Source: Streptomyces sp. NBC_00425
Lineage (GTDB): Bacteria; Actinomycetota; Actinomycetes; Streptomycetales; Streptomycetaceae
Direction of reading: 5' to 3'
Assembly: GCF_036030735.1 (NCBI RefSeq)
Contig: NZ_CP107928.1
Coordinates: 6,200,001-6,264,000 of the forward strand
DNA: 64,000 nucleotides
In this document: in pieces, positions 25,806 through 34,178 of the stretch
Numbering within the stretch: the stretch's first letter is position 1
Layout of the letters: every line of letters begins with the position of its first letter
Notes under the pieces: model-generated
Told to the model about the DNA's origin: nothing
Seen by the model: the letters and a program-made list of their open reading frames with translations, nothing else
The model's database searches: none
Position numbers and translations under genes: made by a program

Positions 25806-26294
25806 ATGGCCGTCAGCGCCGACGCAGTACCCCTGACCGCGCCGCCGGCGGGCCCGGCGAGACCCGCCACGGCGCGCGGCACACGACGACGCGACCTGCT
25901 GCGCGCTCTGCTCGGCGCGTCCGCCGCCCTCGCGATCGTCCCCGTCGTCACCGCCACCCGGCCGCGCGGCCCGGCGGACGGCGGCCCCGCGGACACCTCG
26001 TTCGACGAGACCTACCGGGGACGGCACATCCGGGGGCTCCTCACCACGGCGGGGACCGCGGGCGCGGGCCACGCCCAGTGGACGGTCACGGTCGACGGCC
26101 GTCCGCTGCACCTCATGCGCCGCGCCGACGGCACCTGGCTGAGCATGGTCGACCACTACCGCTCGTACGCCACCCCGCTGGAGGCGGCCCGGGCCGCCGT
26201 CGACGAACTCGGCCCCGGACAGCGGCTGCGCGAGGCGGGCCCGGCACACCACGACGACACGCACATGGGGGGACACCATGGCCTACATCCGTAA
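25806..26294 (+). CDS. melC1: tyrosinase co-factor (copper chaperone) MelC1
   Basis: MelC1 binds apotyrosinase, delivers copper and carries MelC2 out through the Tat system. The 162-residue protein has a twin-arginine-type signal (RGTRRRDLLRALLGAS, about residues 24-40). The conserved MelC1 body follows (DETYRGRHIRGL, GRPLHLMRRADGTWLSMVDHY, YATPLEAARAAVDELG), and the tail is His-rich (HHDDTHMGGHHGLHP). The start ATG is at 25806. It overlaps melC2 by 17 bases, so the two proteins should be made in step. Confidence 0.95.
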   Translation: MAVSADAVPLTAPPAGPARPATARGTRRRDLLRALLGASAALAIVPVVTATRPRGPADGGPADTSFDETYRGRHIRGLLTTAGTAGAGHAQWTVTVDGRPLHLMRRADGTWLSMVDHYRSYATPLEAARAAVDELGPGQRLREAGPAHHDDTHMGGHHGLHP

Positions 26295-27144
26295 GGACGT
26301 CAGCACGCTCACCGCCGCCGAACGGCGGCGCTTCGTGAACGCGCTGCTCGAGATCAAACGGAAGGGGGAGTACGACGAGTTCGTGCGCATGCACATCGAC
26401 CACTACGTCGCGGACGGCGAAGGCGGCCTGCGCAGCGCCCATATGGCGCCCTCCTTCCTGCCCTGGCACCGCCGGTTCCTGCTCGACCTGGAGGAGGCGC
26501 TGCGCCGGGTCGACTCCTCGGTGACGGTGCCCTACTGGGACTGGACGCGCCGGCGCACCGCGACCGCCGCGCCCTGGACGGCGGACCTGCTGGGCGGCAA
26601 CGGGCGGCGCTCCGACCACCGGGTGACCACCGGACCGTTCGCCTACGCCACCGGTGACTGGACGCTCAAGGAGAACGTCACCGACGGAAAGTTCCTCACC
26701 CGGGACCTGGGCCGGGCCGCCGCCCCGATCGACCTGCCCACCGCCGCCGACGTGGAGTGGGCGCTGAAGGACCCGGTCTACGACGTCTCGCCCTACGACT
26801 CGACCCTCACCCGGGGCTTCCGCAACAAGCTGGAGGGATGGGGGACCGGCTCGGGCAGCGCCGCCTGGCGAAACCACAACCGGGTGCACCGCTGGGTCGG
26901 CGGGGTCATGCTGGGCGGCGCCTCCGTCAACGACCCCGTCTTCTGGCTGCACCACGCCTTCGTCGACCTGCTGTGGACCCGCTGGCAGAGCCGCCACCGC
27001 GACCACCGCTATCTGCCGGCCGAACCGCCGGGGCCGACCAGCGGCCAGTACCGACGGGTCGTCGCCCGCCGGGAGAAGCTGCCGCCGTGGGACGTGACGC
27101 CGGATCAGCTGGAGGACGTGTCCCGGACCTACCGGTACGCCTGA
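26278..27144 (+). CDS. melC2: tyrosinase MelC2 (type 3 copper monophenol monooxygenase)
   Basis: This enzyme hydroxylates monophenols and oxidises diphenols to quinones that polymerise to melanin. The 288-residue protein matches the family length. CuA ligands are His39, His55 and His64 (MHIDHY, SAHM, LPWHRR). CuB ligands are His200, His204 and probably His226 (NHNRVHRWVGG, FWLHHAFVD). It has no signal peptide and depends on MelC1 for export. A terminator lies 57 bases downstream, shared with the convergent chaplin. Confidence 0.97.
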   Translation: MAYIRKDVSTLTAAERRRFVNALLEIKRKGEYDEFVRMHIDHYVADGEGGLRSAHMAPSFLPWHRRFLLDLEEALRRVDSSVTVPYWDWTRRRTATAAPWTADLLGGNGRRSDHRVTTGPFAYATGDWTLKENVTDGKFLTRDLGRAAAPIDLPTAADVEWALKDPVYDVSPYDSTLTRGFRNKLEGWGTGSGSAAWRNHNRVHRWVGGVMLGGASVNDPVFWLHHAFVDLLWTRWQSRHRDHRYLPAEPPGPTSGQYRRVVARREKLPPWDVTPDQLEDVSRTYRYA

Positions 27145-27201
27145 CCCCGGCACGGGCGCCCGCGGAGGGGGAGTCGGGGCACGGCGGTCAGGACAGGGGG
27201 A

Positions 27202-27230
27202 GAGCCCCGGCGCTCGAGGTGCCGGGGCTC
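27202..27230. terminator. terminator between melC2 and chpG
   Basis: A 10-bp inverted repeat (27202-27211 and 27221-27230) lies between two convergent genes. On the melC2 strand it is followed by TCCTGGTGG; there is no U-run. Confidence 0.65.
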
Positions 27231-27291
27231 TCCTGGTGGTGCATCCGGTGCGTACGACCGGGGTGTACGCGCGGAGCGTACGGACGACTGC

Positions 27292-27612
27292 TCAGCCGCC
27301 GTAACCGCTGCCGCCGTGGCCGTGGCCGTGGTCGTGGCCGTGCTTGTCGCCGCCGTCCTTGCCGTGGTCGCCGCCGACGTTGGCGCAGGTGTTGCCGAAG
27401 GCCGGGTTCAGCAGGCCGATGACGCTGATGGTGTTGCCGCAGACGTTGACCGGGATGTTGACCGGAACCTGGACGACGTTGCCCGACACGACACCCGGCG
27501 AGCCCACGGCCGCGCCCTGCGCACCCGCGTCCGCCATGGCCAGGCCGGCTCCGCTGACCACCACGGCGCTGGTGCCGAGGGCAACAGCGGCGACCTTCGC
27601 GATGCGAGACAT
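27292..27612 (-). CDS. chpG: short chaplin with His-rich tail (ChpG position)
   Basis: The 106-residue precursor has a signal peptide (1-27), one chaplin domain (AGAQGAAVGSPG, VSGNVVQVPVNIPVN, cysteines 58 and 76) and a C-terminal extension of about 28 residues full of His, Gly and Asp (GHDHGHGHGG). The extension is not part of a standard short chaplin. The start is ATG 27612, six bases after AAGGAG; a GTG lies one codon earlier. It is convergent with melC2. The tail may bind copper or zinc; this is inference. Confidence 0.92.
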   Translation of the reverse strand: MSRIAKVAAVALGTSAVVVSGAGLAMADAGAQGAAVGSPGVVSGNVVQVPVNIPVNVCGNTISVIGLLNPAFGNTCANVGGDHGKDGGDKHGHDHGHGHGGSGYGG

Positions 27613-27672
27613 CACGTTCTCCTTAAGTGATTCGGTACGTGCGGCAGCAGGGGGCGCCGCCGCACGCCCCGT

Positions 27673-27700
27673 TCAACGCCGCCGCCGCCGACCGGTCACG
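27673..27700 (-). promoter_or_regulatory. candidate sigma-BldN promoter of chpG
   Basis: On the minus strand CGTGAC (27695-27700) and CGTTGA (27673-27678) are exactly 16 bases apart and lie about 60 bases before the ATG. This is the best match in the window to the BldN consensus as I remember it (CGTAAC, 16 bases, CGTTGA). Confidence 0.6.
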
Positions 27701-27759
27701 GGGCGTCCGTACGGATCACCCTTTTTGAACCGGGAGTAGTGCAGACGGGTGGCCGGCCA

Positions 27760-28035
27760 CTACGACCGCAGACACGCCGCCACGAAGTCGGCCAGGGTCG
27801 CGATGGACTGCAGACTGTCCAGGCTGAGGTCCAGTGCGGCCACGTCGACGCCGTAACGCCGGTCGATCGCGCCCAGCAGGGCGACGCCGGCCAACGAGGT
27901 GAGGCCGATGCGCGGACCGAACAGGTCGGCGTCGGCGGGGAGTTCCGCGACGAAGGTCTCGTCGAGTCGGGCGGCCTCGGCGATCATCGAACGGATCTCC
28001 CGTTCCACCGCGGCCCGGTCCGGGGTGTCGCTCAC
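27760..28035 (-). CDS. stand-alone acyl carrier protein
   Basis: This 91-residue carrier protein should hold an intermediate on a phosphopantetheine arm attached to Ser47 in the motif GLTSLAGVALL. The usual Asp before that serine is Thr here. The rest follows the ACP four-helix pattern (SMIAEAARL, ELPADADLFG, LDSLQSIATLADFV). The start is GTG 28035, overlapping the stop of the FkbH-like gene as GTGA. It is the last gene of the three-gene polyamine/FkbH operon. An Sfp-type transferase that could activate it is encoded about 4 kb away. Confidence 0.85.
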   Translation of the reverse strand: MSDTPDRAAVEREIRSMIAEAARLDETFVAELPADADLFGPRIGLTSLAGVALLGAIDRRYGVDVAALDLSLDSLQSIATLADFVAACLRS

Positions 28036-29129
28036 GCCTCTGTGTCCTCTCGGTCGGATACGTGCAGCCATGCGGGCGGCTCGGGCAGGTCGCCGTGCAG
28101 GGACCTGCCGAGAACCGCACCCGCGGCGCCGGCGGCCGCACCCACGGCTGCGTCGGTGGTGTCGTCCGTGCGGCGCAGGCCCGCCTGGCGGAGCAGGATG
28201 CGCATCTCGAGGTTGGCGTCCGTCGGGCGCAGCGTCACCCGGAACTCCTCGGCGCCGGCCGCGCGCGAGCGCTCCATCAGCCGGAACAGGAAGGCCGCCG
28301 CCGCGCCTCGTCCGGCCACCCGGCAGGAGAGGGCCAGCAGCGGCACGGAACGGACGGCGGGAGCGGTGCCGTCGACGAGGGCGGCGCCGATGACGCCGTA
28401 GTCGCCGAAACGGTCCGTCATGGCGGCCGTGAACAGGTGGTGTCCCGCCGAGCCGGCCAGCTCGCGCAGCCGGTCGGGGGTGAGGCCGGAGGAGTTCAGC
28501 CGGTGCGTGCGCGCGGCGAGTTCCAGCGCGCGCGGGATCTCCTCGGGTGTGGCGGCGCCGACGGTCAGGCGCATACCGCACCAGCGCAGGAACTCCTCGC
28601 GGGTGCCCTGGAAGCGTTCGGCCTCGGCCCGGCGGGTCTCCTCGGTGCGGTAGCGGTGCACGCGCGCGCGGGACTCCGGCGTCTCCTCCCGGCCCTCGAA
28701 GGCGGCCAGCAGGGCGGGGACCTCCGCGGGGTCGAGGGTGCGCACACCCGGCAGCAGGGCCTCGACCTCGGCACGCTCGTAGGGCGAGTCGTCGACCAGG
28801 AGCAGGGCCTCCACGGCGATGCCGAGGTCCTTCGCGATCGCGCGCAGCGACTCGCTCTTGTCCTGCCAGGAGACCTGCGGGGCGAGGAAGCGCGCCCGCA
28901 GGTCGGGCACGCCCTCCAGCCGGCCGAGCACCGAGGGGGCGCTGCGGCTGGCGATGCTGCTCAGCACACCGCGGGCCGCCAGCGCGTCGATCGCGGCGAG
29001 CATCCGGGGTCGGGGCACGGGCAGTGCGTCGGTGGCCGACTCGACGGCGATCTCGTCCCACAGCGTGCCGTCGAGGTCCCAGACGACGCACTTGACCCGG
29101 TCGGGGTCGAGGCCCTCCGTGCCGCTCAC
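28032..29129 (-). CDS. FkbH-like HAD-family acyl-ACP loading protein
   Basis: FkbH-type proteins dephosphorylate 1,3-bisphosphoglycerate and load the glyceryl unit onto an ACP; some use other small substrates. This 365-residue protein has the N-terminal HAD domain with CVVWDLDGTLW (Asp18, Asp20) and LLVDDSPYERAEVEALLPGVRTL. A C-terminal GNAT-like domain follows (THRLNSSGLTPDRL, DRFGDYGVIGAALV, LALSCRVAGRGAAAAFLF). The length fits the family. The start is GTG 29129, overlapping the upstream stop as GTGA. The adjoining ACP is the probable partner; the actual acyl unit is inferred. Confidence 0.87.
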   Translation of the reverse strand: MSGTEGLDPDRVKCVVWDLDGTLWDEIAVESATDALPVPRPRMLAAIDALAARGVLSSIASRSAPSVLGRLEGVPDLRARFLAPQVSWQDKSESLRAIAKDLGIAVEALLLVDDSPYERAEVEALLPGVRTLDPAEVPALLAAFEGREETPESRARVHRYRTEETRRAEAERFQGTREEFLRWCGMRLTVGAATPEEIPRALELAARTHRLNSSGLTPDRLRELAGSAGHHLFTAAMTDRFGDYGVIGAALVDGTAPAVRSVPLLALSCRVAGRGAAAAFLFRLMERSRAAGAEEFRVTLRPTDANLEMRILLRQAGLRRTDDTTDAAVGAAAGAAGAVLGRSLHGDLPEPPAWLHVSDREDTEA

Positions 29130-31012
29130 CGCACGCCGTCCTGCTCCGGCAGGAACAGCTTCATCGCCAGGCTGGTGGGGTCGAAGCCGAACTTGCGGTA
29201 GACCGTGCGCATCGGGACGTTGCCCACGTGCACCCGACCGACGACCTCGGTGATGCCGTTCGCCAGGCAGAACTCCAGGCCCGCCGTGAGCAGGAGTTCC
29301 GCGACGTCGCTGCGGTTGTCGACGGGGGACACCGCGAGGGAGCGGAAGTTGGCGTAGCGGTCGCCGGTCATCGCGTTCTGGTTGATGCTCACCCAGCACC
29401 AGCCGACGGGTTCCCCGCCCGGCCCGTGGGCGACGATCATGCCCTCCTTCGACTTCTCCATGGCGCGGCCGAGCCGGGCCGCCCATCGCTCGGGGTCGTC
29501 GATGGCGTCCTCGCCGAAGGAGACCCGGGCGATCTCGGCCTCGAACCGCCCGATCGCCGGCAGGTCGCGCTCGTCGGCCTGGCGGGTGACGTACGGCTGC
29601 GCCCGCTCGGCGAGGGCGGCCCGCTCGTCGTCGCCCGGGGCGCGCCAGCCGTGGACGCGTCCGGCGGTGGTCGCTGCGGCGGGGGTGGGCGTCGGAGCAG
29701 GGGCGGTGGCGGCAGGTGTGGGAGTGGGGGCCGTCACGGGGGCCTGGGCCGCTACGGACGTCGGGGCCGTCACGGGCGCCGGGGCGGGGGCCGTGTCCTG
29801 GGGCGCCGGGGGCGCCGGTTCCTCCGCGGGGACCAGGCGGCCGGGACGGAAGGGGCCCTTGCCGCAGGTCGGGCAGCCGTCGGCGCGCAGGGCGGCCACC
29901 GACGTCCAGCGGGCGCCGGGGCCGACGCGGATCCGGGCGTCGCACGCCGCGCAGGTGTACTCGCGCTGCCGGGTCCGCTTGTCGCCCGTGTAGAGGGGTC
30001 CGCTGAACTCGCCCAGGTGGGAGGGGGCCGTCGAGGTGGTCGTCAGGAGATGCTGGAAGAAGCCGACGCCGCCGAGGATGCCGCTGCCCTCGTACTCGTT
30101 GAAGTTGCGGATGTAGCCGTTGGTGACCAGGCCGAGCGCCATGATCTCCCGCTGCACCTCGAGCATCTCGTCCGGGCTCTTGCCGCCGAAGGAGAAGAAG
30201 ACGCTGTGCGCCGGACCGGGCCGCAGGCCCTCCACGGCGCGGGAGAGGAAGAGCCGGGCGCCTTCCGGGGTGTACGGCGGGTCGGTCATGGCCACGTCGT
30301 GCTGCCCGTGCAGCGCGGCGGGCAGCGGCAGCCGCAGATCGTGCTGGACCGTCTCCACGCGCGTGCCGAGACCGGCCGCCGTCTTCTGGATGTGGTCGAG
30401 GATCTCCTGCGAGATGTCCACGACGGTGACCTGCTCGACGATCGGGCCGCCGAGCACGTCTCCCACCACGGCGACGGCGAGCGAGATCAGGTCGTCGTCC
30501 CCGATCAGCAGGAGCGAGCCGCCCGGCAGCGCGCCGGCCGTGAGGAGCGCGAGCACCCGGCGGACCTTGGTCTCGGCCGTGCAGTGCGACTGGTCGATCG
30601 CCATGTCGGCGGCGGGACCCGACTCCATCAGCGCGCGCAGCCGCCGCACGGCCTCGTCCAGCACGTCGGGGATGACCAGCTCGCGTCCGTCGCAGGCGCG
30701 GCAGGTGGCGTCGAGGACGAGGTCCATGCCGAGCCGGGCGACGAGCTCCTGACCGGCCTCGGTCAGCCGCGACGGGCGCTGCGTGGTGACGAGGCCGCGT
30801 CGGCGCAGCTCGTTCCCCAGCGCGGCGACGATCGGGACGGGCAGGCCGGTGGCCCGGCTGAGGTCCTTGGTGGAGGCGGGGGCCAGCCGGCGCAGGGCGC
30901 GCAGGACGGACCGCACTCCCGGCGGACCCTCCTGGAGCCGGACGGCTTCCGCGACTTCCGTGAGCACGGATTCGGCGGTGCTGCTCCCAGGGTGCCGACG
31001 CGCGTTGGTCAC
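29126..31012 (-). CDS. BpsA-like branched-polyamine synthase fused to zinc ribbon and GNAT domain
   Basis: BpsA (N4-bis(aminopropyl)spermidine synthase) transfers aminopropyl groups from decarboxylated AdoMet. Using GTG 31012 (GGAG eight bases upstream) the protein has 628 residues. A winged helix (about 35-85) is followed by CRAC (104-107) and an aminopropyltransferase domain with LIGDDD (169-174), MTDPPYTPEG (242-251) and GYIRNFNEYE, all close to the archaeal enzyme. Then come a zinc ribbon (Cys354, 357, 380, 383), an Ala/Pro/Thr linker (about 397-450) and a GNAT domain (about 475-620) with NVPMRTVYRKFGF. In-frame starts at 31054 and 31201 exist; codons before 31054 have markedly lower GC3. 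It is the first gene of the FkbH/ACP operon. Confidence 0.85.
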   Translation of the reverse strand: MTNARRHPGSSTAESVLTEVAEAVRLQEGPPGVRSVLRALRRLAPASTKDLSRATGLPVPIVAALGNELRRRGLVTTQRPSRLTEAGQELVARLGMDLVLDATCRACDGRELVIPDVLDEAVRRLRALMESGPAADMAIDQSHCTAETKVRRVLALLTAGALPGGSLLLIGDDDLISLAVAVVGDVLGGPIVEQVTVVDISQEILDHIQKTAAGLGTRVETVQHDLRLPLPAALHGQHDVAMTDPPYTPEGARLFLSRAVEGLRPGPAHSVFFSFGGKSPDEMLEVQREIMALGLVTNGYIRNFNEYEGSGILGGVGFFQHLLTTTSTAPSHLGEFSGPLYTGDKRTRQREYTCAACDARIRVGPGARWTSVAALRADGCPTCGKGPFRPGRLVPAEEPAPPAPQDTAPAPAPVTAPTSVAAQAPVTAPTPTPAATAPAPTPTPAAATTAGRVHGWRAPGDDERAALAERAQPYVTRQADERDLPAIGRFEAEIARVSFGEDAIDDPERWAARLGRAMEKSKEGMIVAHGPGGEPVGWCWVSINQNAMTGDRYANFRSLAVSPVDNRSDVAELLLTAGLEFCLANGITEVVGRVHVGNVPMRTVYRKFGFDPTSLAMKLFLPEQDGVR

Positions 31013-31297
31013 AATGCTGCTCCAGGCAAGCTGTTCGATCGATTGCGGGACCATCCAGTATACGGGCTGGTAGGCAGCCGACCGGACCCACTCCCACACT
31101 GCGGAAACAGTGCGGGATCGCGGTGCGAAAGGGGAATTCGAAGAATGGTTTCCGGTGTGTTCGGCAAGCGGTGCTGCGGTGATTTCGGATTGCTGCTTCA
31201 CGGTTCACGGAAAGAATTCTGTAACCGTATCCGTAACGGCTTGCGAAACGGTCCGGGAGAATTGCTGCAGAAATGCCCTGAGCGCCCCCGGCCGCCC

Positions 31298-31327
31298 TTG
31301 ACCGAGGGCGCGCGCGAGCCGTAGGGC
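31298..31327 (+). promoter_or_regulatory. possible promoter of the SAM-decarboxylase-like gene
   Basis: TTGACC (31298-31303) and TAGGGC (31322-31327) are 18 bases apart. The -10 match is weak. The surrounding 395-base divergent region between the BpsA-like and decarboxylase-like genes is AT-rich for this genome and contains no gene. Confidence 0.35.
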
Positions 31328-31367
31328 ATCCCGGATGCTACGCTGGGGGCCACCGAGCGCCTATGTG

Positions 31368-31407
31368 AAAGGAGACGGGGGAAGCTGTTCGTCACCCCCG
31401 GTTCCCC
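31368..31407 (+). promoter_or_regulatory. distant Shine-Dalgarno plus hairpin leading directly into the start codon
   Basis: A strong AAAGGAGA (31368-31375) lies more than 30 bases before the ATG at 31408, too far for normal initiation. Between them GGGGAA (31378-31383) can pair with TTCCCC (31402-31407), so a hairpin would bring the ribosome site next to the ATG. An alternative GGGGG/CCCCC pairing (31377-31381 with 31395-31399) exists. Confidence 0.45.
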
Positions 31408-31788
31408 ATGACCAACTCCACCGACCTCGCCACCGAGGGTATAAACGTCGACGATCTGTGCTCTTATGCGGTCGACGTATGGGTGAGCGATCACAGCATC
31501 CTGACCGACGAGGAGCGCCTCCTCCAGGTGCTGCGCACGGCCGCCGAAAAGGGAAACGCCACGGTTCTCGGTGAGGCGTCGCACGTTTTTCCGAACGGTG
31601 CCGTCACCGCTATTCTGCTCCTTTCCGCATCGCACCTGAGCATTCACACCTGGCCCGAATTCAGCCTGGCCAACGTGGATCTCCTCGCCTACGGCCGGCT
31701 GAACGGCGAGCGGATGATGCAGAGCGTGGAACTCGGCCTCTCGCCGACACGGATCAACGTGACGCGCATGCTGCGCGCCGTGCACTGA
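31408..31788 (+). CDS. S-adenosylmethionine decarboxylase-like pyruvoyl protein with altered active site
   Basis: The 126-residue length and fold motifs match bacterial class 1B AdoMet decarboxylases, which self-cleave to create a pyruvoyl cofactor from Ser. The core SHLSIHTWPE is intact: Ser75 would become pyruvoyl, and His80 and Glu84 are kept. Three usual residues differ. The Glu before the cleavage serine is Ala74, the helper Ser (T. maritima Ser55) is Thr67 and the proton-donor Cys (T. maritima Cys83) is Tyr95. Substrate or activity may therefore have changed; some AdoMetDC homologues are now ornithine or arginine decarboxylases (from memory). It is divergent from the BpsA-like gene, 29 bases before the PPTase. 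Confidence 0.85.
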   Translation: MTNSTDLATEGINVDDLCSYAVDVWVSDHSILTDEERLLQVLRTAAEKGNATVLGEASHVFPNGAVTAILLLSASHLSIHTWPEFSLANVDLLAYGRLNGERMMQSVELGLSPTRINVTRMLRAVH

Positions 31789-31817
31789 CCCGTTCCTTTC
31801 CTTCCGGAACCGGGCCC

Positions 31818-32642
31818 GTGATCTCCGTGCAGGTCGCGTGGGCGCGCCTCGGTGACGCCCACGCCGATCTGCTGACGCTCCTCGATCCCGTGGAGCGAGG
31901 CCGTCACGACGAGACCGTGGCCCCCGCCGACCGGGCCCGCTTTCTCGCCGGCTGCGCCCTGAGCCGTCTGCTCCTGGGCGAGCTGCTCCACCTGCCCCCG
32001 GCCGACGTGCCGCTGCGCCGGGTGTGTCCCCGCTGCGGCGGACCGCACGGAAAGGTCCGGCTGGACCTGCCGGACGCCCCTGTGCCGTACGACTTCTCCG
32101 TGACCCACAGCGGCGCGGTCGTCGGCGTGGCGGTGTCCTCGGACGGATCCGTGGGCCTCGACGTCGAGGACGGCGAGGCGCCCGTCGATGTGGACGGCGC
32201 CGCACGGACCGCACTGTCCGGGACCGAGCTCGCCGCCCTGTACGCCCTTCCTCCCGCCGAGCGCCGCCTCGCCTTCCTGCGCGTCTGGACCAGGAAGGAA
32301 GCCGTCCTGAAGGCCCTCGGCGTGGGCCTGCGGATGCCGTTGCGCGCACTGAAGGTGTCGCCGCCGGCAGCGCCTCCGGCCGTGCTCGTCTGGCCGCCCC
32401 CGTCGGCCGCCCCTCCTGACCTGCGCGTTTCCAACCTGCGCCCGGCCGACCTGCGCATGGCGGACCTGCTCGTCGACGGCGTGCACCCTGCGACGGTGGC
32501 GATGGCGGTGACAGAGGCGACAGCGGTGACACAGGTGAAGGCGGCGACGGGGCTCGCGGCGCGCGGCGCGGTGAGCGGCCCGGGAGAGGTGCGGGTCGTC
32601 CCGCGCGACGGCTCGGCGATACTCGCCGCGCACAGCCGCTGA
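31818..32642 (+). CDS. Sfp-type 4'-phosphopantetheinyl transferase
   Basis: This enzyme moves phosphopantetheine from CoA to the serine of carrier proteins. The 274-residue protein has FSVTHSG (93-99), the magnesium motif GLDVE (113-117) and WTRKEAVLKALG (157-168), the standard Sfp signature, in the right order. The tail after about residue 185 is longer than usual and of low complexity (LRVSNLRPADLRMADLL, then Ala/Thr/Val repeats). The start is GTG 31818. It follows the decarboxylase-like gene by 29 bases and converges on an unrelated membrane gene. The nearby ACP is its likely substrate. Confidence 0.88.
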   Translation: MISVQVAWARLGDAHADLLTLLDPVERGRHDETVAPADRARFLAGCALSRLLLGELLHLPPADVPLRRVCPRCGGPHGKVRLDLPDAPVPYDFSVTHSGAVVGVAVSSDGSVGLDVEDGEAPVDVDGAARTALSGTELAALYALPPAERRLAFLRVWTRKEAVLKALGVGLRMPLRALKVSPPAAPPAVLVWPPPSAAPPDLRVSNLRPADLRMADLLVDGVHPATVAMAVTEATAVTQVKAATGLAARGAVSGPGEVRVVPRDGSAILAAHSR

Positions 32643-32669
32643 ACGGCGGTGGCGCGGTCGCTTCGGCCG

Positions 32670-33299
32670 TCACGACCCTCCGGCGAACGGATTGCCGTGT
32701 CCGGGAAGCTGCCCGCCCGGCGGCACGTACCGCAGCCGACCGCCCCGGTCGGTCACCGGTGTGAACCCGGCGGCCTGGAGGCGGGCCGCGTGACGGGTTC
32801 GGTATCGGCGGCCGTGGACGAGCAGGACGGGCAGCAGAGCCATGAGCGCGGCCCACACGACGCCGACGACGACGAGTGCGACGGAGTCCGCGCGGAGCCT
32901 GAAGCCGATGGCCGCCGCGAACGCGGTCAGGGTGAACACCGCGAGCCCCATGCGCACCTTGTCGCTGTACTGACTTCCGCTGTCGACCACCATGCGGGCC
33001 TTGAGGATCTCGATCGCGTCGGGTACGACGGGCGGCAGCGAGACCCCGTCGCCCGCGCCCGGGTACCGCTCCCAATTGCGCGCAGCGCGCTGTCGGGCCT
33101 GCGGACCGGGGTCGGGCACGATGAACAGCGCGAACTTGTTGTCGTCGGTCAGCTGCACGTCCGCGTACGCGTACCCGAACTGCTCGGCGAAGAAGGCGAG
33201 TCGGGCGAGTCCCTCCCATGACGACATGGAGACGGTCAGCCGCACGGGCTCCCCGCTTGCCATGTTCCGCAGCATCTTCCGCACATGCTTCTTGCGCAT
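32670..33299 (-). CDS. hypothetical membrane protein
   Basis: This 209-residue protein is not recognised. A cytoplasmic N-terminal half (RLTVSMSSWEGLARLAFFAEQFGYAYADVQLTDDN) is followed by two adjacent hydrophobic helices (about 127-146 and 149-170). A short basic C-terminal domain ends with GGRLRYVPPGGQLPG. The start is ATG 33299. It converges on the PPTase gene and looks unrelated to it. Confidence 0.7.
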   Translation of the reverse strand: MRKKHVRKMLRNMASGEPVRLTVSMSSWEGLARLAFFAEQFGYAYADVQLTDDNKFALFIVPDPGPQARQRAARNWERYPGAGDGVSLPPVVPDAIEILKARMVVDSGSQYSDKVRMGLAVFTLTAFAAAIGFRLRADSVALVVVGVVWAALMALLPVLLVHGRRYRTRHAARLQAAGFTPVTDRGGRLRYVPPGGQLPGHGNPFAGGS

Positions 33300-34178
33300 C
33301 GCGCCCCCGTGTTCCTCAAAGTTCCGGCAGTCCGCCGCCAACGGCAGGCTCAGGTCGGGCTGGGCCGCCCATGCTCGCTGCGTCGCGGACGTGCGCGCCG
33401 CCTTCGACGGCATTCGGCGGAGAAGCGGGCGACGCGTATCGGCTGAAGCCGTCCGCCCGGGGTATCCGCCTGAACATGCTCGCTCTGATCGCCTACCGCT
33501 CCTACCACGGCGCAACAACCGTGTGGGCCTTCGTGGTTGCCACTCTCATCGTGCTGGTGGCGGGTTGGTACATCCGACGCCAAAGGTAAGTGCGCCCCCC
33601 CGTGGCCCCCGTGCCCCCGTCCCTCATCGCTGCATCAGAGCTCTCACCATCCGTTTCAGTTCGTGCCGAGGCGGTGGGCCGCGTCTGACGGGGACTGCAC
33701 CTCAAGTCCGTGTCGCTGAACAGCGTACGAAGTCCGCCGAGTCGGTATCACGTATTGATCCGGCATATTGGACACGGCCAGACTGCCTGCTGTCGGCAAC
33801 GAAGCCTGAGGGAGCGGCTCTGGGCCGGAGCTGCTGCTCAGGGGCGCTCCCGGATTCGCCGTACTCGGCCCTCCGCCGGCCGCGGTCCAGGAATCGGTCT
33901 GCGCCCGTCTGCCGGCACCGGACGAGTCATCGACTCTTCGAACCAACTCCGTCGCGCCAGTTCTGGCGATCACGCGTCTCGACCGACCTCGTCGGCCGAG
34001 TGGTTGAGGCGGCCTTCCTGGTCTTCCCAGGGGATCGAGCCGGCGCAGTCTTCACCACCCGCCACACGTCCGACGAGAGCAGACTGGTCCCATGGCCCCG
34101 CCGAATTCCCCGGGCGGGGCCCCAACCATGTCCGGCGTGGCACCATGCCCCTCCAGCACACCGTTTCATGGGGGACAC
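33300..34178. other. gene-poor stretch with weak coding signal
   Basis: Apart from one doubtful 37-codon ORF there is no gene with normal Streptomyces codon use here. GC at third positions is lower than in neighbours and several frames are closed. It is the left part of a patch of unrelated small genes that runs to the tRNA-Arg. Confidence 0.5.
33476..33589 (+). CDS. possible 37-residue single-pass membrane peptide
   Basis: The short ORF encodes a basic N-terminus followed by one strong transmembrane segment (TVWAFVVATLIVLVAGWYI) and a basic end. No clear ribosome binding site is present, so it may be chance. Confidence 0.3.
   Translation: MLALIAYRSYHGATTVWAFVVATLIVLVAGWYIRRQR

What the first reader, a model, noticed from the sequence alone, without database searches (positions are those of the whole stretch)
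27760..32642. Candidate undescribed polyamine-acyl conjugate pathway: BpsA-GNAT, FkbH-like, ACP, AdoMetDC-like and PPTase
The sequence shows a three-gene operon with GTGA overlaps (BpsA-like/zinc ribbon/GNAT fusion, FkbH-like, ACP), divergent from an AdoMet-decarboxylase-like gene and an Sfp-type PPTase. AdoMetDC and BpsA belong to aminopropyl-polyamine synthesis; FkbH, ACP and PPTase belong to glyceryl or hydroxymalonyl-type extender loading. I know of no described pathway that combines them. Inference: a long or branched polyamine is made and then acylated with a carrier-bound small unit, with no PKS or NRPS present. The product could be a surface or signalling polyamine, given the aerial-coat neighbourhood.
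Basis: partly seen in the sequence, partly recalled or inferred. Interest (0 to 1): 0.87.

Follow-up and report, generated by a model that had tools for sequence, protein, structure and literature searches.

The report
Conserved aminopropyl plus carrier-protein acylation cassette
A small set of genes in a Streptomyces chromosome, found together again in other families of soil bacteria, looks like an undescribed pathway that adds a short amine arm to an unknown molecule and caps an amine with a small acid carried on a protein.

Summary
The PPTase is often adjacent but not core.

In 150 Streptomyces genomes BpsA_C is in 6 and SpeD in 7; all 6 have both, adjacent. The module's BpsA keeps the dcSAM-binding GDDD motif; 15 of 15 other-clade BpsA_C proteins examined have GDHD. 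The GNAT lacks the canonical CoA pyrophosphate loop, which fits a carrier-protein donor.

Best reading: SpeD makes dcSAM, BpsA aminopropylates an unknown amine, FkbH loads a glyceryl-type unit on the ACP, and the GNAT forms the amide. Substrates and product are inferred.

Two corrections: Streptomycetaceae module SpeD has Tyr in place of the catalytic Cys, under strong purifying selection; and the chaplin/tyrosinase neighbourhood is not shared by the other-family copies, while one copy sits inside a pactamycin-type cluster.

The parts
27760..28035 (-). ACP (91 aa)
   Evidence: PF00550 30.9 bits. Phosphopantetheine Ser (LTSLAG here, LDSLAG in the other family) kept in every row of the ACP alignment. 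FkbH-ACP fusions exist: P0182, P0203, P0211.
28032..29129 (-). FkbH-type HAD-IIIC protein (365 aa)
   Evidence: TIGR01686 178.1 bits, cut-off 146.65. WDxDxT in 119 of 120 and SCRxxGRG in 111 of 120 listed relatives.
29126..31012 (-). BpsA / zinc ribbon / GNAT fusion protein (628 aa), start refined to GTG 31012
   Evidence: PF01861 and PF00583; start conserved with GGAG upstream.
30047..30652 (-). BpsA_C domain with the GDDD motif
   Evidence: GDDD in 11 of 11 module BpsAs aligned.
29858..29968 (-). zinc-ribbon-like stretch with two CxxC pairs
   Evidence: sub-threshold DUF7560 match, otherwise by eye.
29129..29635 (-). GNAT domain
31057..31062 (-). TATACT, -10-like element upstream of the BpsA start
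   Evidence: GTATACT unchanged in all 17 Streptomyces sequences aligned; coordinates read. Similarity to a consensus only.
31408..31788 (+). SpeD / AdoMetDC-like proenzyme (126 aa), catalytic Cys replaced by Tyr
   Evidence: PF02675 81.8 bits; the only PF02675 match in the genome; Tyr at the Cys83 position.
31818..32642 (+). Sfp-type PPTase (274 aa), accessory
   Evidence: PF01648 52.3 bits. Matched in 18 of the 19 Streptomyces SpeD-bearing loci, and near the copies in L149 and L078; no match in the Streptosporangiaceae-type contexts or L148.

Best explanation
The genes encode one enzymatic cassette. SpeD decarboxylates S-adenosylmethionine to dcSAM; BpsA uses dcSAM to put a 3-aminopropyl group on an amine acceptor that is not encoded here. 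The PPTase (or another in the cell) arms the ACP; FkbH takes a three-carbon acyl unit, most likely D-glyceryl from 1,3-bisphosphoglycerate, and places it on the ACP; the GNAT domain, fused to BpsA in Streptomyces, moves it from the ACP to an amine of the aminopropylated product. The result would be a small N-acyl (glyceryl) aminopropyl-amine, made without a PKS or NRPS of its own. Shown: the genes, motifs, conserved co-occurrence, fusions. Inferred: every reaction, the order of steps, the acceptor, the acyl unit.
Against: The Cys83 position, needed for self-processing and catalysis in T. maritima AdoMetDC (PMC10407285, passage), is Tyr in all 54 Streptomycetaceae-type SpeD rows, so dcSAM formation is uncertain just in the window's clade. 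The Tk-BpsA C-terminal acidic cluster that carries the aminopropyl group was not recognised here. The GNAT's nearest folds are CoA users, and the loop keeps the last G/A, so CoA is not excluded. No amine source, transporter or product gene was seen to be conserved beside the set. FkbH substrate is by family only; it scores far lower (178 bits) than the two other FkbH copies of this genome (292 bits). L105 has the four-gene operon and no SpeD in 19 kb.
Confidence: 0.5

Rival explanations
1. SpeD is not an AdoMet decarboxylase in Streptomycetaceae: it decarboxylates another amino acid, as the SpeD-derived ornithine and arginine decarboxylases do, and supplies the amine; the BpsA-like protein then uses SAM or another donor.
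For: Cys to Tyr in 54 of 54 Streptomycetaceae-type rows. SpeD without a Spermine_synt_N domain in the genome is the kind of anomaly by which Li et al. found such enzymes (PMC10407285). SpeD protein identity of 91-99% while fourfold-site identity is 48-82% shows it is maintained.
Against: Ser63, His68 and the Pro of HTWPE are kept; in the other two families the same module carries a SpeD with Cys; GDDD stays in the Streptomyces BpsA. The cited paper reasoned that Cys83 would be kept in ornithine and arginine decarboxylases too. The four ODC-diagnostic residues are in a figure that was not available.
Confidence: 0.18
2. Two half-pathways side by side: SpeD, BpsA and an acetyl-CoA-dependent GNAT make an N-acetylated aminopropyl-amine, and FkbH with ACP serves another acceptor.
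For: GNAT nearest folds are CoA-dependent; an acetylated branched-chain polyamine is known from Thermococcus (PMC12979288, passage).
Against: FkbH and ACP follow the GNAT in the contexts long enough to show it; the CoA loop is degenerate in every relative checked; no other acceptor enzyme was seen conserved beside them.
Confidence: 0.17
3. FkbH loads something other than glyceryl (another acyl phosphate) on the ACP, the rest of the scheme being right.
For: The FkbH here is divergent within TIGR01686 (178 bits against 292 bits for the two others in this genome).
Against: HAD and SCRxxGRG motifs are kept, and no alternative substrate supplier was seen in the set.
Confidence: 0.12
4. The genes are neighbours by common descent only, without a joint function.
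For: Most of the Streptomyces copies share the flanking chaplin and tyrosinase genes too.
Against: The set stays together in three families, with different flanks, orders and fusions.
Confidence: 0.03

Closest known systems
BpsA, N4-bis(aminopropyl)spermidine synthase (EC 2.5.1.128) of Thermococcus and Thermus
   Same: PF01861 domain, sequence match to 5xnc and 6j27, GDDD, the Asp of TDPP, and the Tyr of FNxY.
   Different: A zinc ribbon and often a GNAT follow; no C-terminal acidic cluster recognised; the 2026 review's held text has no occurrence of Streptomyces or of words beginning Actino. Acceptor unknown.
Class 1b AdoMet decarboxylase (SpeD) and its SpeDA/SpeDC derivatives
   Same: PF02675; Ser, His and Pro of the active-site stretch.
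   Different: Cys to Tyr in Streptomycetaceae; partner is BpsA rather than SpeE.
FkbH / OzmB-type glyceryl transferases with stand-alone ACP (methoxymalonyl and tetronate pathways; function recalled)
   Same: TIGR01686 above cut-off; ACP next door or fused.
   Different: No PKS partner and no oxidising or methylating genes of the methoxymalonyl route in this set.
BtrI/BtrH of butirosin (acyl carried on an ACP and moved to an aminoglycoside amine; recalled)
   Same: Works like: an ACP-bound acyl side chain is put on an amine outside a PKS or NRPS. A BtrH_N protein stands beside ACP, SpeD and a BpsA_C protein in the second S. rishiriensis locus.
   Different: GNAT instead of BtrH; FkbH instead of an ATP-grasp loader; aminopropylation added.
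Polyamine N-acetyltransferases such as DpA and PaiA
   Same: GNAT fold, small-amine type.
   Different: CoA pyrophosphate loop degenerate; ACP gene in the operon.

Membership tests
BpsA aminopropyltransferase | PF01861 domain over cut-off | tested here: met
   129.8 bits, cut-off 27
BpsA aminopropyltransferase | GDDD motif (Tk Asp159/Asp160) | tested here: met
   role from passages of PMC12979288
BpsA aminopropyltransferase | acceptor-side Asp225 and Tyr290 (Tk numbering) | tested here: met
   Asp of TDPP and Tyr of FNxY present; both are also present in the GDHD clade, so they do not discriminate. Glu259 not conserved in the alignment; Tyr316 not tested.
BpsA aminopropyltransferase | C-terminal acidic cluster that carries the aminopropyl group | tested here: inconclusive
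   not recognised by eye; a zinc ribbon follows the core
BpsA aminopropyltransferase | aminopropyl transfer from dcSAM to spermidine | not testable with these tools
   needs an assay
AdoMet decarboxylase (SpeD, class 1b) | PF02675 domain over cut-off | tested here: met
   81.8 bits, cut-off 25; NCBIfam equivalog TIGR03330 missed narrowly, 74 against 75.65
AdoMet decarboxylase (SpeD, class 1b) | Ser63 and His68 | tested here: met
AdoMet decarboxylase (SpeD, class 1b) | catalytic Cys83 | tested here: not met
   Tyr in the window and in all 54 Streptomycetaceae-type rows; Cys in L078 and in the 12 Streptosporangiaceae-type genomes with a SpeD. So the window's protein is filed as SpeD-like only.
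FkbH family | TIGR01686 over cut-off | tested here: met
   178.1 against 146.65 bits
FkbH family | HAD motifs DxDxT, S, K, DD | tested here: met
FkbH family | loading of glyceryl from 1,3-bisphosphoglycerate onto ACP | not testable with these tools
   needs an assay
GNAT N-acetyltransferase using acyl-CoA | GNAT fold | tested here: met
GNAT N-acetyltransferase using acyl-CoA | R/Q-x-x-G-x-G/A pyrophosphate loop | tested here: not met
   final G/A position kept
acyl carrier protein | PF00550 and phosphopantetheine Ser | tested here: met

The most novel reading that the evidence does not exclude
A class of metabolites not yet described: glyceroylated (or otherwise small-acyl) aminopropyl amines built by a PKS- and NRPS-free cassette in which dcSAM aminopropylation and FkbH/ACP acyl loading feed one bifunctional BpsA-GNAT enzyme, with a pyruvoyl decarboxylase variant that uses Tyr in place of the catalytic Cys in Streptomycetaceae, and with the same cassette borrowed as a tailoring unit by aminocyclitol antibiotic clusters.
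Probability: 0.35. Interest if true: 0.82.

Novelty: new variant of a known kind. Interest (0 to 1): 0.66.

Why it matters
If right, aminopropyl transfer and carrier-protein acylation, known from separate fields, meet in one small cassette. In the Streptomyces genomes sampled it accounts for nearly every SpeD found, so it would give a reason for dcSAM in a genus that mostly lacks SpeD (7 of 150 genomes). It also offers a ready test of whether Tyr can replace the catalytic Cys in a pyruvoyl enzyme, and of GNAT use of acyl-ACP. The set is small enough to rebuild from purified proteins.

Tried and rejected
Aerial-coat link: rejected, because chaplin and tyrosinase genes do not travel with the set outside one Streptomyces group.

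'Every BpsA_C protein is an aminopropyltransferase': rejected. The class-wide hits (89 of 393 genomes at E 0.001, 82 over cut-off) are mostly another clade; where contexts were read, many lie by ORFs of about 1480-1525 and 484 aa that I take, from size only, for gltB/gltD. I also first noted an IRNFNEY motif as general to the module; one search shows the RNFNEY part only in the Streptomyces rows aligned, so it is dropped.

RNA element in the SpeD leader: a GGAG-like site at 31368 and a G5/C5 hairpin are conserved in the 17 aligned sequences, but the fold is no better than shuffles (z 0.14) and no Rfam family reached its gathering score in 27000-33500 (one chance-level match). Not claimed.

Plasmid spread: no near DNA match, and only one weak protein match in Nonomuraea, in the plasmid collection.

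Rows left out: FkbH and GNAT alignments used 25 chosen loci, not all; L109 ends before the SCR motif and L012 is out of frame there. L082 gave no BpsA hit. Three Streptomyces genomes are split over two contigs (L013/L020, L014/L021, L018/L022). L090 and L095 end 0.5-1 kb beyond BpsA without a SpeD. Searches list the best 120 of 440 and of 207 hits; the best 120 of 2105.

Full report
What is there. Five genes lie in 27760-32642 of a Streptomyces chromosome (9.8 Mb, one contig; the window is 6200001-6264000 of it). On the minus strand an operon with two 4-base GTGA overlaps encodes a BpsA/zinc-ribbon/GNAT fusion, an FkbH-type HAD-IIIC protein and an ACP; divergent from it are a SpeD-like gene and an Sfp-type PPTase. 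Alignment of 17 Streptomyces upstream regions places the fusion's start at GTG 31012 with GGAG before it and a conserved TATACT further up.

Is it a unit? A scan of genome contigs gave 22 loci from 19 Streptomyces genomes (L001 is titled only Actinobacteria bacterium OV320). In one search, SpeD matched in 19 loci (L001-L019), FkbH in 19 and ACP in 19 (16 on the same contig, 3 on the second contig of a split genome), PPTase in 18. In 150 Streptomyces genomes PF02675 was found in 7 and PF01861 in 6; all 6 PF01861 genomes are among the 7 and the two genes are adjacent; the seventh SpeD (G118) is a divergent protein elsewhere. In a sample of 393 genomes of the class, PF01861 occurs in 89 and PF02675 in 20. 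In 6 genomes the two are close neighbours, and these are the module (five of the window's genus and G217 of another family). Of the other 83 PF01861 genomes 7 have a SpeD, each on a different contig.

Other families. A search of 341 genomes of the family of G235 with a Crossiella BpsA gave 15 hits at E 1e-60 or better, 44-49% identical. I take the family for Streptosporangiaceae because its GNAT finds proteins of that name at 78-80%. Of the 15 contexts, 8 hold SpeD, BpsA, GNAT, FkbH and ACP together (L098, L099, L101, L103, L104, L106, L108, L110); 6 are cut by contig ends (L090, L095, L100, L102, L107, L109); L105 has BpsA, GNAT, FkbH and ACP but no SpeD in 19 kb. BpsA and GNAT are separate genes there. 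G217 (L078, a third family) has BpsA-GNAT, FkbH, ACP, SpeD and a PPTase match. Streptacidiphilus (L149) and S. nitrosporeus (L148) have the set in altered order, with split BpsA and GNAT in the latter. By name lists only, related BpsA or FkbH proteins also come from Goodfellowiella, Crossiella, Allokutzneria and Salinactinospora; 31 contig lengths are shared between the two lists of 120, which suggests, but does not prove, common contigs.

BpsA. The protein matches solved BpsA structures and a relative (5xnc, 6j27; 2qm3, deposited as a predicted methyltransferase). According to passages of a 2026 review (PMC12979288), Asp159 and Asp160 of GDDD hold the aminopropyl group of dcSAM, and C-terminal acidic residues carry it. 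GDDD is in 11 of 11 module BpsAs aligned and in 119 of 120 listed relatives, the exception being the short P0105. In 15 of 15 other-clade proteins the motif is GDHD. The Asp of TDPP (SDPP in L079) and the Tyr of FNxY or FHxY are in both clades. An acidic C-terminal cluster was not recognised in the module protein. I therefore expect dcSAM chemistry with an acceptor that may differ from spermidine.

SpeD. It is the only PF02675 match of the genome, and PF17284 (Spermine_synt_N) has none, while 8 of 14 control genomes match each. The stretch ASHLSIHTWPEFSLANVDLLAYG keeps the pyruvoyl Ser and the His but has Tyr at the place of Cys83. In one search, Tyr stands in 54 loci (the window counted), all of the Streptomycetaceae type, many of them repeats of the same genome; Cys stands in 34 loci: 24 of the 12 Streptosporangiaceae-type genomes, 2 of G217 and 8 of unrelated SpeD contexts. 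Between the window and 16 Streptomyces loci SpeD is 91.3-99.2% identical in protein but 47.9-82.2% at fourfold sites, while BpsA-GNAT is 73-89%, FkbH 69-85%, ACP 68-86% and PPTase 56-71% (15 loci) in protein. So the Tyr form is kept by strong selection. A Tyr can be the proton donor of a pyruvoyl enzyme, as in aspartate decarboxylase (recalled, no call). Li et al. (PMC10407285, first part and passages) report SpeD-derived ornithine and arginine decarboxylases; they reasoned that Cys83 would be conserved in them, so the Tyr form does not simply fall into those groups. I could not see their figure of diagnostic residues.

FkbH, ACP, GNAT. FkbH is over the TIGR01686 cut-off; SCRxxGRG, which I recall as typical of the family, is in every aligned row that reaches it in frame and in 111 of 120 relatives. 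Two other FkbH copies with equal scores lie at both chromosome ends. The GNAT model (mean pLDDT 89.2) has the fold of PAT, YncA, Ard1 and the polyamine acetyltransferase DpA. At the CoA pyrophosphate loop the module has DNRSDVAE or PDRSxIGE; the pattern R/QxxGxG/A occurs in 0 of 120 stand-alone and 0 of 107 fused relatives, within 12 residues after FRSxAx, while 4j3g and 2ge3 have it in the alignment. This fits an acyl-ACP donor but does not exclude CoA.

Use inside antibiotic clusters. In S. nitrosporeus the set lies between radical-SAM, B12-radical-SAM, Gfo/Idh and hydrolase genes on one side and aminotransferase, AMP-ligase, KASIII and a 1763-aa type I PKS on the other. Four radical-SAM genes and glycosyltransferase, PIG-L, carbamoyltransferase, DegT and Gfo/Idh genes match the make-up of the pactamycin (ptm) cluster as listed in PMC13402214 (passages); the naming is by domain content, not by sequence comparison with ptm. 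A second locus in S. rishiriensis, with related radical-SAM, B12-radical-SAM, carbamoyltransferase and DegT genes, carries SpeD (Tyr), PPTase, ACP, a BtrH_N protein and a BpsA_C protein whose motif is GDDE and which lacks TDPP; no FkbH match was found there. These suggest a tailoring role on amine-bearing scaffolds, which is my inference.

Verdict. The combination was not found in print (open-access library only). I commit to dcSAM aminopropylation plus acyl-ACP-dependent amide formation at 0.5; the joint function of the genes I hold at above 0.9.

Noticed in passing
   Followed up: partly
   Followed up: partly
L143 2504-14365, L144, L145: SpeD-like genes in another kind of cluster in three Streptomyces genomes; in L143 with ATP-grasp ligases, radical SAM, MFS, Trp-dioxygenase-like and methyltransferase genes. 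A possible further use of dcSAM.
   Followed up: partly
L066-L077, L079-L081: A second clade of BpsA_C proteins with GDHD instead of GDDD, in genomes mostly without SpeD; function unknown.
   Followed up: partly
G000:C1:51325-52311 and 9753002-9753988: Two FkbH matches with identical scores at both chromosome ends of the window's genome, as in a terminal inverted repeat.
   Followed up: no
window 31368-31407: Strongly conserved SpeD leader with a GGAG-like site 35-40 bases before the ATG and a G5/C5 hairpin in between.
   Followed up: partly
L012: BpsA-GNAT and FkbH pieces in S. phaeoluteigriseus are out of frame in places; an assembly error or a decaying copy.
   Followed up: no
G118 C84 (L030, L065): A SpeD-like stretch with Cys but STWPE instead of HTWPE in a long open frame, unrelated to the module.
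   Followed up: no
window 25806-27615: Tyrosinase pair (melC1/melC2-like, named from recall) and a chaplin-like gene beside the set in most Streptomyces copies.
   Followed up: yes
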